From: Chloroflexota bacterium
GTDB lineage: Bacteria > Chloroflexota > Anaerolineae > Anaerolineales > UBA11858
DNA: 50,904 nt
Assembly (NCBI GenBank): GCA_016865865.1
Contig: VGOC01000016.1
Location: 1-50,904, forward strand
Direction: 5' to 3'
Of this stretch, positions 20,024 through 47,455 are shown one piece after another; position 1 is the stretch's first letter; each line of letters opens with the position of its first letter. The position numbers were made by a program, and so were the translations under genes. Below the pieces are notes generated by a model. That model was not told the DNA's origin and ran no database searches. It saw nothing but the letters and a program-made list of their open reading frames with translations.

Positions 20024-23000
20024 CTAACATTCACTATACCCACAGGCGTAACACTTCCTGCAGCCCTCCTCGCTGACCAGGGCTGCCTGTCCACAATCTG
20101 GGCATAGATCGCCGATCTCGAAGGAACCAGGCTGAGATTCTTCTTGATTTCCGAGAGCCAACTCCGAGCGTTCAGCAGACTCCTGCCCATGATCGTGACC
20201 GGCTTCACGCCAGGTATATTCTTCGAGAGAGTTCCCCAGATACTCACGCAACGCTTGAGAGACGCCATCGGGAAGAGATCGCACCCGATTCGGCCCAAAA
20301 CCCAAAGGACGACCGCCGCCAATGCCAGAGAGCTGATGCACGATCTCGTACAGGCGCTCACGCGGCGCGATGGGAGAAGCCAGCCGCAGCGTATAAGAAA
20401 TCAGGCGACCAATCGCTTCCGAGACAGCCGCGGTATCTGAGCCGGCCTTGGCGGTGTTGATAAAGACCTCGAAAGGCTGTTCGCCGCCATTTTCGTTGAC
20501 CGTCACGAAGGCTTTGCCCAGAGGCGTGTTGACGTTATAGGTGTAGCCCTGTAATCGGCGAGGGCGCGGCTTCTTGGTTTCATGCCAGATGGTCAACAGG
20601 GCTTCCTCGGGGGCAATGTCCTCGCCGCCATTATCTTTCTCCTTTACCGTGGTCCGAGTCTCCAGGACAACCTTTTGACGCGAACCCGTGACATACACCG
20701 TGATGCCCTTGCAGCCCATTTCCCAGGCCAGTTTATAAGCTTTGGCAACATCTTCTTCCATGGCGTCTTCGGGGAAATTGATCGTCTTCGAGAGGCTGTT
20801 ATCCACAAAGGCCTGTAAAGCCGCCTGCATCCGTACATGTTCGGTCGCTGAAATATCCTGCGAAACCACGAAGGTATCGCGCAAGTGTTCAGGTAGCATC
20901 TCGACATTCTGACAGGTACCACTTTCCAATACCAACTCGATGATCTGTCCTCGCTCATCTTCTTCCAGGCCGGCCTCGACCAGCGCTTTCTCGAATAAAG
21001 GACTGGTGTAAGTTAGTTCCAAATCCAGGCCATGATCATCCACATGGCGGATATAAGCCAGCGCGAAGACCGGTTCACAGCCATAGCCCTCGCAGCCAGC
21101 CACCGTAGCGATCGTCCCTGTGGGCGCAATGGTCGTCTGGGCGGCGTTGCGGATGCCGTGTTCCCGGATGCCTCCGACCACATCCTCCCAATTCAAGGCT
21201 GGGCGACCCCAATCATGTTGGTATTGCACAATCGAAGTTGGCGGCTCCCACGCCATATCCGATGGGTCATAGATACTCCCCGAAATGACCGGGAATGCGC
21301 CGCGCGACTTCGCCAGCTCGATGCTGGTGCGCATAGCATGATAACGCACGAACTCCATCACCTGGGCAGCGAACTCCTGTCCCTCCGGCGAACCGTAACG
21401 GATGCCGGCGTGATACATCAAATCTCCAAGCCCCATGATGCCTAATCCAATCCGCCGGGTGCTGAGGGCGGTTTCCCTCAATTCTGGCACATCGGGGACG
21501 TATGCATTGGCGTCAATCACATCGTCAAGGAAGCGCGTCGCTAACTCAACCGAATCCTGTAATTTCAGCCAATCTACAGAACCACCTGGCCCCAGGTGTT
21601 GCGCCAGGTTGACCGAGCCCAGGCAACAGTTCTCGTAACTGCCTAAAAACTGTTCGCCGCAATTATGCACCACGACGCCATTGGCAATGAACGAATGGGT
21701 TCCTGGTTGATGTAGATCGAAAACTGGCTCTACACCGTCTTGTTCTACGCCAAGCACAGTGGCCATAAAAGGCTCTTTATAAGGCCCGCGCGTCAAGCGG
21801 CTGAGAGATCGAAAACTGGCTCTACACCGTCTTGTTCTACGCCAAGCACAGTGGCCATAAAAGGCTCTTTATAAGGCCCGCGCGTCAAGCGGCTGAGATA
21901 ATTCGCCAGTTTGTTTTGTTTTTCCTGCGTCAGAAAGCCGATCTCATTAGCAAAACGGGTCAAGTTGGTTTTGCTGATTGCCAACTCATGCTGCGCCTTG
22001 TGGAGATAATCTTTTGCGCCGCCCTTGCCATCAGGCATGGGGCGGTATCCGCTCAACCTGCGGTTTTCGTAAATTCGGCTGGCAACGCCAAAATTCAAGA
22101 GCAACTGCTGTACCCCCTTCAACAGGGGCAAATGACTGGAACTCAAACGAACAGAGCAACCTTTATCACCGCCATCGTTGACATAGCCATCTGCAGTCAA
22201 TAACGCTTGGAGGAAACCACGTTGCAGGGCCTCGCTGCCCGCAAGAACGGCAGGCGGAACCAGGGGTTTGTGTTCTTTTGTAATTCCATACTTCACAGCC
22301 CAACGATGCAATCGCTCAGATGAAATTCGCGCCTCATCGCGCTCCTCGATATAGGTCACGCCAACGGGGTAAGGCCGTCGTTGTGCAGGATTTTCGATCA
22401 GGTTAGTGACAAATTCAGCAAAAACAGGCGCCAACTGGCGTTTCTCGTCTCCGAAGAAAGAAAGCACTGCACGATTTACGTTAACCGTCCCATCGCCAAG
22501 CAACCAACCGAGCACACGGCCTTCTTCCAGCGTACCAGATTTACCAAACCCACCTTTGTGATTCAAGATGTGAACGAGATCCCCGGGACACAGATCACGT
22601 GCTTTCACCCAGCCGCGCGCGGTCATAACCTTGTGATCTTCCGTAAGGCGCACTTCGTACCCCTGGCGGGTCATGAGGCGATAAACGGCCTTCTCTCCGG
22701 TGTGGAAGACACTCGTCGCCCGCTGGAATACTTCTGTTCCGAAGCGCGTATCAACAGTAGCGGATACCGGTGCGCCTGCCACAGCCAGCTCATCCGCCCG
22801 GAATAAGCCATCCTTCGTATAAATCAGCGTTTCACCGGAAACACAGGGATTTGTCGCCTCGAGCATATAACGGTGCGGAACAGGGTTGGCGCGGTTGGCT
22901 GCATCCAAGAAGAGCACCCCCGGCTCGCCGTTATGATGGGCCTGGGTGACGATCTTATCGAACAACTCGCGCGCCCGAACCCGCCTGTAAACTTTGATGG

Positions 23001-23784
23001 GAATCCCCTGCGCTTCCGCCTGCTCGATCGTACCACTGAATTCTCGATAGTCCGCACATTCGACATCCGGGAAGCGCAAATCCCACCAATCGTCATTTTC
23101 GACGGCCTGCATGAAGGAATCCGTGATCCCTACGGAGATGTTGAAGTTGGTGATCGCATCTTCATCGGTTTTGCAGGTGATGAACTCTTCGATGTCGGGG
23201 TGATCGACGCGAAGGACGGCCATATTGGCGCCGCGTCGTGCGCCGCCTTGAGCTACCTCACCAAAGGCTTTATCATAAACCCGCAGGAAACCCACCGGCC
23301 CGGTGGCTTTTCCGGCAGAGGTCTTGACCAGCGTATTCTTTGGGCGCAGGCGCGAAAAGGAGAAGCCGTTGCCGCCGCCGGTCTGCTGAATCAGCGCGGC
23401 ATCCCGTAAAGTCTGGAAGATGCCATCATGCCAACGCCCCATATCGTCGCTGAGCGGCAGCACGAAACAGGCCGCCAATTGCCCCAGGGGTGTGCCCGCC
23501 CCCGTGAAGGTGGGAGAATTGGGTAGGAATCGTTTTTCGGCAAGAAGATCATAGAAGCGGCGCGCCGCCTGAAAGGGGTTCTCGCCCCATCTCTGCTCGA
23601 CAGCCGCGATATGATAAGCCACGCGCCAGAAAGTACCTTCTACTGTCTCGATGGGTTGTCCGTCCTCATCCCGGCGCATATAACGCCGCGCGAATACCTG
23701 AGAAGCATTTTCTGATAACTCCACCTGGCGAGAACCTTCAGGCAGCGGCGGGATTTGTTTTGTGTCTACCTCATTTAAAATCAT
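20024..23784 (-). CDS. nrdJ: B12-dependent class II ribonucleotide reductase NrdJ, intein-containing, frame broken by a 92-bp duplication
   Basis: NrdJ reduces ribonucleotides to deoxyribonucleotides using adenosylcobalamin. The two ORF-track entries (21793-23784 and 20024-21796) are one gene. The N-extein is 313 residues, with [10 protein letters not shown] and [18 protein letters not shown]. An intein interrupts it exactly before the Cys of NPCGE, the radical-bearing finger loop. The C-extein is 545 residues, ending in a zinc-ribbon-like CPDCGQ and CYACGYSEC. The 92-bp tandem repeat at 21714-21897, inside the intein, shifts the frame; removing one copy gives a continuous reading frame (858-residue mature protein). 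It lies 66 bp downstream of nrdR. Confidence 0.95.
21662..22845 (-). mobile_element. Intein with LAGLIDADG homing endonuclease in nrdJ
   Basis: The intein begins with Cys1 ([13 protein letters not shown]) directly after EATNP and ends [10 protein letters not shown], followed by Cys+1 of CGEQF. Block B is seen as TEDHKVMT. Two dodecapeptide-like motifs, LGWLLGDG and [12 protein letters not shown], mark a DOD homing endonuclease. The span is 1184 bp; less the 92-bp duplication it is 1092 bp, exactly 364 codons. Inteins at RNR active-site loops are a known class. The splicing residues look intact, so self-splicing is expected if the frame is really continuous. Confidence 0.93.
21714..21897. repeat. 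Exact 92-bp tandem duplication inside the nrdJ intein
   Basis: The 92-bp block ending GTCAAGCGGCTGAG is present twice head to tail (21714-21805 and 21806-21897) with no mismatch. Because 92 is not divisible by three, it creates the split into two ORFs. In protein terms the phrase [20 protein letters not shown] is encoded twice. Confidence 0.97.
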
Positions 23785-24475: not shown

Positions 24476-24547
24476 AAACAGACATTCAGAGATCGCTGGG
24501 AGGAGGGCCAGCCATCTCTAGCTCTACTACGATTTGTAAAAAACCAG

Positions 24548-24643
24548 GTAACTACTCAGCCAAACGGAGAAATTCCCGAAAAAAGGGTGTGCGTAGGGGT
24601 GCTGCGCACCCCCACCTAATCCGTTCGATGACTGAGCAGTTAC
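24548..24643. mobile_element. MITE-like element copy A (96 bp) with 8-bp target duplication
   Basis: The element starts GTAACTACTCAGCC and ends ACTGAGCAGTTAC, imperfect terminal inverted repeats. It is flanked on both sides by AAAACCAG (24540-24547 and 24644-24651), a perfect 8-bp target duplication. The inside forms a hairpin around CCCGAAAAAAGGGTGTGCG. It holds no ORF. Ends beginning GTAA plus 8-bp duplications resemble the IS66 family, which may have mobilised it. Confidence 0.88.
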
Positions 24644-24658
24644 AAAACCAGTATGCAG

Positions 24659-45800: not shown

Positions 45801-45865
45801 TAGTCACTTCGTGGATTCAAATATCATAGCCTTCCATTATCAACACAATCATGTTAAACTTTTAG

Positions 45866-45982
45866 GTAACTACTCAGCCAAACGGAGAGATTCCCGAAAA
45901 AAGGGTGTGCGCTGGGGGCGTAGCCGCTTTGCGTGCGCACACCCTTTTTTCGGGTAAATCCGTTCGATGGCTGAGCAGTTAT
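45866..45982. mobile_element. MITE-like element copy B (117 bp) with 8-bp target duplication
   Basis: It begins GTAACTACTCAGCCAAACGG and ends GGCTGAGCAGTTAT, as in copy A. Both sides carry ACTTTTAG (45858-45865 and 45983-45990). The interior is a long hairpin, CCCGAAAAAAGGGTGTGCGC against GCGCACACCCTTTTTTCGGG. It lies between the GNAT gene and recA, right before the recA leader; the right junction forms a -10-like TATACT. Confidence 0.9.
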
Positions 45983-46020
45983 ACTTTTAGAACTTGAATA
46001 TACAAGGAGAAGATTACACC

Positions 46021-47031
46021 GTGAGCGAAGAGAAGCAAGTCGCGCTCGATCATGCTCTAGGTGATATCACCAAACGGTTTGGAGACGGAATAATCATGCG
46101 ATTGGGTGAGGCGCGCCACCTGAATGTGGACGTTATCCCCACCGGATCCCTTTCGCTCGATATCGCTCTCGGTGTGGGCGGCATCCCTCGGGGCCGTGTG
46201 ACAGAAATCTATGGCCCTGAATCTTCTGGAAAGACGACCATCGCGCAACATATCGTCGCTGAGGCGCAGAGGATGGGCGGCATCGCGGCTTTCATTGACA
46301 TGGAGCATGCCCTCGACCCGATCTATGCCGAAGCGTGCGGTGTGGATGTCGAGAACCTGCTCATCTCGCAGCCCGATATGGGTGAGCAGGCTTTGGAGAT
46401 CACGGAAACGTTGGTGCGCTCCGGCGCGGTGGATGTGGTGGTGATCGATTCGGTGGCCGCCCTGGTTCCCCGGGCTGAACTCGAAGGGGATATGGGCGAC
46501 GCCCACATGGGCTTGATGGCGCGCTTGATGTCCCAGGCCTTGCGCAAACTCTCTGGGGCCATCAAACAGGCCAACACCGCCGTAATCTTCACCAACCAGC
46601 TACGCCAGAAGATCGGTGTAGTCTACGGCAACCCGGAGACCACCACCGGCGGGCAGGCGCTCAAATTCTACGCCTCTGTGCGTTTAGATGTGCGCCATGT
46701 CCAGACCATCAAAATCGGTTCGGAAGTTGTTGGCAGCCGCACGCGCGTGCGCGTGGTCAAGAACAAGGTTGCCCCGCCATTTCAAACGGCGGAATTCGAT
46801 ATCATGTATAATGAAGGTATCTCCAAGGCAGGCGATCTGCTCGATCTGGCTGCCGAAATGGAGATCATCAGCAAGCGGGGTTCGTACTATTCGTACGGAG
46901 ACCAGAGGATCGGGCAGGGGCGTGAGAGCGCCAAAGATTTCCTGCGCCAGAACTGGAGCCTGGCCGAGCAGATCGAAGCGACCATCCGCGCAAGACTGCT
47001 GCCGCTTCCGCTGATGCCGCTCGAACATTGA
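46021..47031 (+). CDS. recA: Recombinase RecA
   Basis: RecA drives strand exchange and SOS induction. I start at GTG 46021 ([20 protein letters not shown]), which has AAGGAG about 10 bases upstream; the TTG at 45994 is less likely. The 336 residues contain Walker [27 protein letters not shown], Walker [11 protein letters not shown] and the loop-2 region [21 protein letters not shown] (in part). recX lies 435 bp downstream. Confidence 0.98.
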
Positions 47032-47201: not shown

Positions 47202-47346
47202 AGACCAAAGGGCAGCTTTTGCGTAATATATTGAACGAACAGGTTGTCATTTAACCTGTCGGCGAAAAGCATCATACAAAAACTGAGATCTCGATTGGCG
47301 AAGCGCGCAACCGTGGCTTGAAGATTAGCCACGGTTTAATTTTTTT
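47202..47346 (+). ncRNA. Candidate structured small RNA between recA and recX
   Basis: The ~145-base segment contains nested stems, GCTTTTGC with GCGAAAAGC (47215-47222, 47262-47270) enclosing ACAGGTT with AACCTGT (47239-47245, 47253-47259). It ends in an intrinsic terminator. No ORF fits. I do not recognise an RNA family; it could be a small RNA or a recA 3' or recX 5' element. Confidence 0.35.
47309..47346 (+). terminator. Intrinsic terminator between recA and recX
   Basis: AACCGTGGCT pairs perfectly with AGCCACGGTT across an 8-base loop, followed by TAATTTTTTT. This is the clearest Rho-independent terminator in the window. Confidence 0.88.
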
Positions 47347-47455
47347 GGCTATTCAACCATAAGGAAGGTTCCCGAAAAAAGGGTGTGTGCAGTGGGCGCG
47401 CCCCCTGCACACACCTTATCTTCGGGCAAATCCGTTCCGAGACTTGATAATTGGT
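47347..47455. mobile_element. Diverged MITE-like copy C between recA and recX
   Basis: The core TTCCCGAAAAAAGGGTGTG and the right side CGGGCAAATCCGTTC match copies A and B, and the inner part forms a hairpin (GTGTGTGCAG with CTGCACACAC). The termini are eroded (GGCTATTCAACCATAAGGAA for GTAACTACTCAGCC) and no target duplication is clear. It is older or only partial. Confidence 0.65.

What the first reader, a model, noticed from the sequence alone, without database searches (positions are those of the whole stretch)
24540..24651. A MITE-like family with perfect 8-bp target duplications
Copies A (24548-24643) and B (45866-45982) share ends (RTAACTRCTCAGCC) and are flanked by AAAACCAG and ACTTTTAG duplications, so both clearly transposed. 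Copy C (47347-47455) is eroded. GTAA ends with an 8-bp duplication point to an IS66-type transposase as helper.
Basis: partly seen in the sequence, partly recalled or inferred. Interest (0 to 1): 0.65.

Follow-up and report, generated by a model that had tools for sequence, protein, structure and literature searches.

The report
IS66-driven MITE family with invertible hairpin
The repeat is one of about 200 copies of a tiny transposon without genes of its own, almost certainly moved by an IS66-type (ISBst12-group) transposase; its core is a perfect DNA hairpin whose arms stay matched and whose tip is found in either orientation.

Summary
Copies A and B are intact insertions with perfect 8-bp duplications, and copy C is an eroded relative. 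The host genome (3.25 Mb draft, Anaerolineales, Chloroflexota) holds 109 elements with exact paired ends (control 0), and end counts suggest about 210 copies. Of 91 read in full, 72 have perfect 8-bp duplications. Three congeners have the empty site for copy B. The IS66 reading is supported. Single-ORF IS66 elements across many phyla carry the same 14-bp end GTAACTRCTCAGSC and 8-bp duplications, as does the active ISDge4 (ISBst12 group). In one congener whose IS66 ends read GTAACTACTAAGCC, MITEs carry that same variant; six other congeners have none. No intact helper was found in the host itself, only a fragment. New here: the core is a hairpin shaped like a two-way terminator. Its arms co-vary, and its tip lies in both orientations in every main subfamily (32:53). 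This fits template switching at inverted repeats, a known process. It is an ordinary kind of element, a new family, and a good natural record of hairpin evolution.

The parts
24540..24547 (+). target-site duplication, left of copy A (AAAACCAG)
24548..24643 (+). copy A: 96-bp MITE, A end left, B end right; internal deletion of 18 nt of the right hairpin arm
   Evidence: comparison with L005
24644..24651 (+). target-site duplication, right of copy A (AAAACCAG)
24575..24591 (+). left hairpin arm CCCGAAAAAAGGGTGTG of copy A
45858..45865 (+). target-site duplication, left of copy B (ACTTTTAG)
45866..45982 (+). copy B: full-length 117-bp MITE in the recA 5' region, 38 bp upstream of the conserved GTG start at 46021
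45893..45954 (+). hairpin core of copy B (two-way terminator-like; whole element folds at -72.3 kcal/mol, z -11.4)
45983..45990 (+). target-site duplication, right of copy B (ACTTTTAG)
45994..47031 (+). recA (likely start GTG 46021)
47345..47455 (+). copy C: eroded relative directly upstream of recX; hairpin kept with paired changes, ends decayed

Best explanation
The repeats are non-autonomous miniature transposons (MITEs) of 96-117 bp. They are mobilised in trans by an IS66-family transposase of the single-ORF ISBst12 type, which recognises the 14-bp end GTAACTRCTCAGSC and duplicates 8 bp on insertion. Between the ends lies a near-perfect hairpin (CGAAAAAAGGGTGTGC...tip...GCACACCCTTTTTTCG) built like a two-way intrinsic terminator. 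The hairpin is kept palindromic, and its tip is inverted from time to time, by polymerase template switching between the two arms. Shown here: the copies, duplications, empty site, the IS66 end match, the co-variation of ends with the resident IS66 in one congener, arm co-variation and tip inversion. Inferred: trans-mobilisation, template switching as the cause, terminator activity.
For: 109 exact paired-end elements vs 0 control. 72/91 perfect 8-bp duplications. Empty site of copy B in three congeners with one copy of the target. IS66 single-ORF elements with GTAACTRCTCAGSC-type ends and perfect 8-bp duplications: L192, L194, L196, L207, L213, L215, L219, L224 and L076; transposases of this clade hit NCBIfam NF033517 IS66. 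ISDge4 of the ISBst12 group moved experimentally, with ends GTGACTACTCAGCA/GTAACTGCTCAGCA and 8-bp repeat CCTCGATG (PMC12898284). The CTAAGYC end variant occurs 15 times in congener G003, which has an IS66 with exactly those ends, and 0 times in six other congeners; several of the G003 copies are MITEs with the same hairpin core. Tip in both orientations in at least 7 arm/tip classes, including copies identical outside the tip. A side, B side and arm haplotypes are linked (p 4e-6 to 7e-14), but tip orientation is not linked to A side or arm (p 0.11, 0.38). 60/91 have perfectly matched 24-nt arms in several different sequences. Template switching is known to give both arm homogenisation and spacer inversion (PMC8604942, PMC8794818).
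Against: No intact IS66 with these exact ends was found in the host genome, only a fragment with a different end. The similarity between IS66 and MITE ends is limited to about 14 bp. The tip inversion rests on draft assemblies, and some contigs do break inside these hairpins. Tip orientation shows a weak association with the B side (p 0.017).
Confidence: 0.88

Rival explanations
1. The inverted tips are an assembly artefact: short-read graphs cannot orient a short loop between identical arms in a 200-copy repeat.
For: Contigs of this and related genomes end inside hairpins (C85; L303, L307, L309), and one G001 contig end is a fold-back palindrome.
Against: Variants on the far left, far right and arms of the same element are strongly linked across the tip, so copies were phased over their full length, while tip orientation alone is not. 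Both orientations also occur in copies with perfect duplications (22:45). Loops in both orientations appear in the distant genome G033.
Confidence: 0.12
2. The repeats are host regulatory modules (dispersed two-way terminators) kept for transcription termination, not selfish elements.
For: A6/T6 tracts flank a stable GC stem in nearly all families, and the stem sequence varies with pairing kept across genera.
Against: No enrichment between convergent genes: 3 of 82 placed copies, against 11% of intergenic bases. 8-bp duplications and transposon ends show they arrived by transposition. Copy B lies in the recA 5' region, an unhelpful place for a terminator. The terminator scan did not flag them.
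Confidence: 0.1
3. The helper is a non-IS66 transposase that happens to share GTAAC ends and 8-bp duplications.
For: No intact IS66 with matching ends in the host draft.
Against: Match over 14 bp to the ends of many IS66 elements, and co-variation of the CTAAG variant with the resident IS66 in G003.
Confidence: 0.06
4. Tip inversion and arm matching come from the transposition reaction itself (a hairpin or single-strand intermediate) and not from ordinary replication.
For: Inversions are frequent and found in copies with intact duplications.
Against: IS66 is a DDE family; template switching at any perfect inverted repeat suffices. Comparable loop orientation differences appear in G033 hairpins whose outer sequence does not have the IS66 ends.
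Confidence: 0.12

Closest known systems
IS66 family, ISBst12 group (e.g. ISDge4 of Deinococcus geothermalis, PMC12898284)
   Same: 14-bp terminal repeats GTRACTRCTCAGC-, 8-bp target duplication, slightly unequal left and right ends (A/G at position 7)
   Different: The elements here have no gene, are 96-117 bp instead of about 1.5 kb, and carry a hairpin core
Prokaryotic MITEs reviewed in PMC10969869 (MITEAba12, ERIC, Sulfolobus SM1-SM4)
   Same: Short, non-coding, terminal inverted repeats, target duplications, tens to hundreds of copies, RNA foldable
   Different: IS66 parentage; neither IS66 nor Chloroflexi is mentioned in that review; a core hairpin with inverting tip; ends that follow the resident IS66 in one congener
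SPRITE / terminator-like repeats of Streptococcus pneumoniae (cited in PMC10969869)
   Same: Dispersed repeat resembling a rho-independent terminator
   Different: Different host and (by my own knowledge, not compared here) different sequence; here with clear transposon ends and duplications
Template-switch arm homogenisation and spacer inversion at short inverted repeats (PMC8604942, PMC8794818)
   Same: Exactly the two signatures seen: matched arms and inverted spacer
   Different: Described for yeast coding genes and rRNA genes; here it is seen many times over within one dispersed bacterial repeat family

Membership tests
MITE | Short, no coding capacity, terminal inverted repeats | tested here: met
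   96-117 bp, 14-bp inverted ends
MITE | Target-site duplication at each insertion | tested here: met
   72/91 perfect 8 bp, 8 more with one mismatch; empty site for copy B
MITE | Many dispersed, mostly intergenic copies | tested here: met
   109 exact pairs, about 210 by end counts; 84 of 91 not overlapping a called gene
MITE | Ends shared with an autonomous element in the same genome | tested here: inconclusive
   Host draft has only an IS66 fragment; met in congener G003
IS66 family, ISBst12 group (as source of ends and helper) | GTAA ends and 8-bp target duplication | tested here: met
IS66 family, ISBst12 group (as source of ends and helper) | Terminal sequence matches IS66 elements beyond GTAA | tested here: met
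   GTAACTRCTCAGSC in IS66 loci of many phyla; no clear match further in
IS66 family, ISBst12 group (as source of ends and helper) | Mobilised in trans by the IS66 transposase | not testable with these tools
   needs a mobilisation assay
Intrinsic terminator | GC stem followed by T tract | tested here: met
   Stem with A6/T6 tracts; full copies fold at about -66 to -80 kcal/mol; the simple scan missed it, probably because the T tract pairs with the A tract
Intrinsic terminator | Stops transcription / sits at transcript ends | tested here: inconclusive
   No convergent-gene enrichment; no expression data
Known Rfam RNA family | Match above gathering score | tested here: not met
   Only plant miRNA look-alikes far below cut-off for copies B and C

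The most novel reading that the evidence does not exclude
A modular MITE lineage across Anaerolineales in which one hairpin core is handed on while the transposon ends are exchanged to match whichever IS66 is resident, and in which hairpin arm correction and tip inversion are part of the element's life cycle (for example tied to transposition), not incidental replication errors.
Probability: 0.15. Interest if true: 0.65.

Novelty: new member of a known kind. Interest (0 to 1): 0.42.

Why it matters
An IS66-driven MITE family at this copy number was not found in the literature searched. Its ends track the resident IS66 in one congener and so point to the helper. The roughly 200 near-identical hairpins with independent insertion marks are a natural experiment on how inverted repeats keep their arms matched and flip their loops in a bacterium. 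Copy B places a strong hairpin in the recA 5' region, a testable effect on a DNA-repair gene.

Tried and rejected
An intact autonomous element was sought in the host through PF03050: only one fragment at C96. IS66-ended MITEs were sought in the genomes of two Caldilineaceae IS66 loci: none. No match in plasmids at distant sensitivity or to the core 19-mer in viral contigs. Rfam gave no real match. A host terminator role was tested through gene orientation and not supported. The idea that some copies are translated inside genes (as Rickettsia palindromic elements are) was checked for the four copies in long called ORFs: they sit near gene 3' ends and show no sign of a conserved in-frame insert. 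Ectopic recombination between oppositely oriented copies as the cause of tip inversion was rejected because copies with perfect duplications show both orientations.

Full report
OBSERVATION. Copy A (24548-24643) is flanked by AAAACCAG on both sides, copy B (45866-45982) by ACTTTTAG on both sides, and copy C (about 47345-47455) keeps the hairpin but has decayed ends. In the window the core CCCGAAAAAAGGGTGTG is found 5 times at up to 3 mismatches against 0.2 expected.

GENOME-WIDE. The host is a 3.25-Mb draft in 168 contigs. An exact paired-end pattern finds 109 elements and none for the reversed control. Single ends at up to two mismatches number 242+247 against 34+28, which suggests about 210 copies. 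From stretches around hits I extracted 91 distinct elements; 72 have a perfect 8-bp flanking duplication and 8 have one mismatch. Most are 112, 114 or 117 bp. The two ends are alike for 14 bp and then differ: A end GTAACTACTCAGCCAAACGG, B end GTAACTGCTCAGYCATCGAACGGATT. Copy A is a 114-bp form that lost 18 nt of its right arm.

EMPTY SITE. Three congeners have the recA upstream region without the insertion. Joining the host flanks with a single ACTTTTAG aligns with them closely across the site. Copy B therefore is a real insertion in a conserved block just upstream of the recA ribosome-binding site, 38 bp before the conserved GTG start. A promoter immediately upstream is plausible but not established (the scan found none).

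HELPER. PF03050 (IS66) finds one fragment in the host (C96), with an end GTAACTACCTACCC, and full genes in congeners and in the order. A clade of single-ORF IS66 transposases (L073, L075, L077, L081, L087; 41-60% identical; the three tested hit NCBIfam IS66) has ends close to GTAACTRCTCAGSC. A scan of GTDB genomes with an alignment of three of them gave 70 loci. IS66 elements of about 1.5 kb from Chloroflexota, Cyanobacteriota, Planctomycetota, Spirochaetota, Bacillota and Pseudomonadota carry this kind of end, and eight have perfect 8-bp duplications. ISDge4 of the ISBst12 group has ends GTGACTACTCAGCA and GTAACTGCTCAGCA with an 8-bp repeat and was seen to transpose (PMC12898284); its left and right ends differ at the same A/G position as A and B here. 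In congener G003 the IS66 has ends GTAACTACTAAGCC, and the variant GTAACTRCTAAGYC occurs 15 times there and 0 times in six other congeners. Two of the 15 are the IS66 itself; several others are MITEs with the same hairpin core, one with perfect duplications AGCTTACG. This co-variation is the strongest evidence for the helper.

HAIRPIN. Full host copies fold at -72 to -80 kcal/mol, z -11 to -14. The core has an A6 tract, a GC stem and a T6 tract, readable as a two-way intrinsic terminator. Similar cores with different stems occur in other families of the order: G025, G029, G141 and G274, and also in G033 without the IS66 ends. Gene context does not favour a host terminator role: 54 copies lie between codirectional, 25 between divergent and 3 between convergent genes, with no enrichment at convergent sites; 84 of 91 do not overlap a gene called by a simple script.

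ARMS AND TIP. 60 of 91 copies have perfectly matched 24-nt arms, in several different sequences (..CGTGGGG..CGAAGGG..CGCAGGG..CGTAGGG..AGCAGGG..CTTGGGG), so arm changes occur on both sides together. The asymmetric tip is found in both orientations relative to the A and B ends in every main subfamily (32:53 overall), including copies identical outside the tip, in at least seven arm/tip classes. Left, right and arm haplotypes are strongly linked across the tip (p 4e-6, 7e-14, 1e-12), whereas tip orientation is not linked to left side or arm (p 0.11, 0.38) and only weakly to the right side (0.017). That argues against assembly scrambling and for recurrent inversion. Polymerase template switching at inverted repeats is known to produce both arm homogenisation and spacer inversion (PMC8604942, PMC8794818). 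I take it as the likely cause; this step is inference.

VERDICT. A new MITE family of a known kind with a well-supported IS66/ISBst12 helper. The unusual part is the record of hairpin arm correction and tip inversion in many independent copies. In the papers searched I found no IS66-driven MITE family; the library holds open-licence papers only.

Noticed in passing
window 21714-21898: Exact 92-bp tandem duplication near the C-terminal end of an intein in the ribonucleotide reductase gene (ORFs 21793-23784 and 20024-21796, minus strand); it shifts the frame and splits the gene into two ORFs. Real mutation or assembly error is undecided.
   Followed up: partly
G000:C24:22234-23205 (L293): A second recA-like gene (79% identical to the window's RecA) in the same genome; most congeners also have two.
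   Followed up: no
G003 loci L297, L299, L308: Very short relatives (about 50-70 bp) with intact or nearly intact ends and matching or near-matching duplications but without the hairpin core, probably core deletions.
   Followed up: no
L067, L177, L179-L182 (G033): Similar hairpin core nested in different outer sequence without IS66 ends; loops TTT and AAA both occur, suggesting tip inversion there too.
   Followed up: partly
L009 1381-1614: Two different MITE copies inserted next to each other, each flanked by the same 8 bases GTTTTTTC.
   Followed up: no
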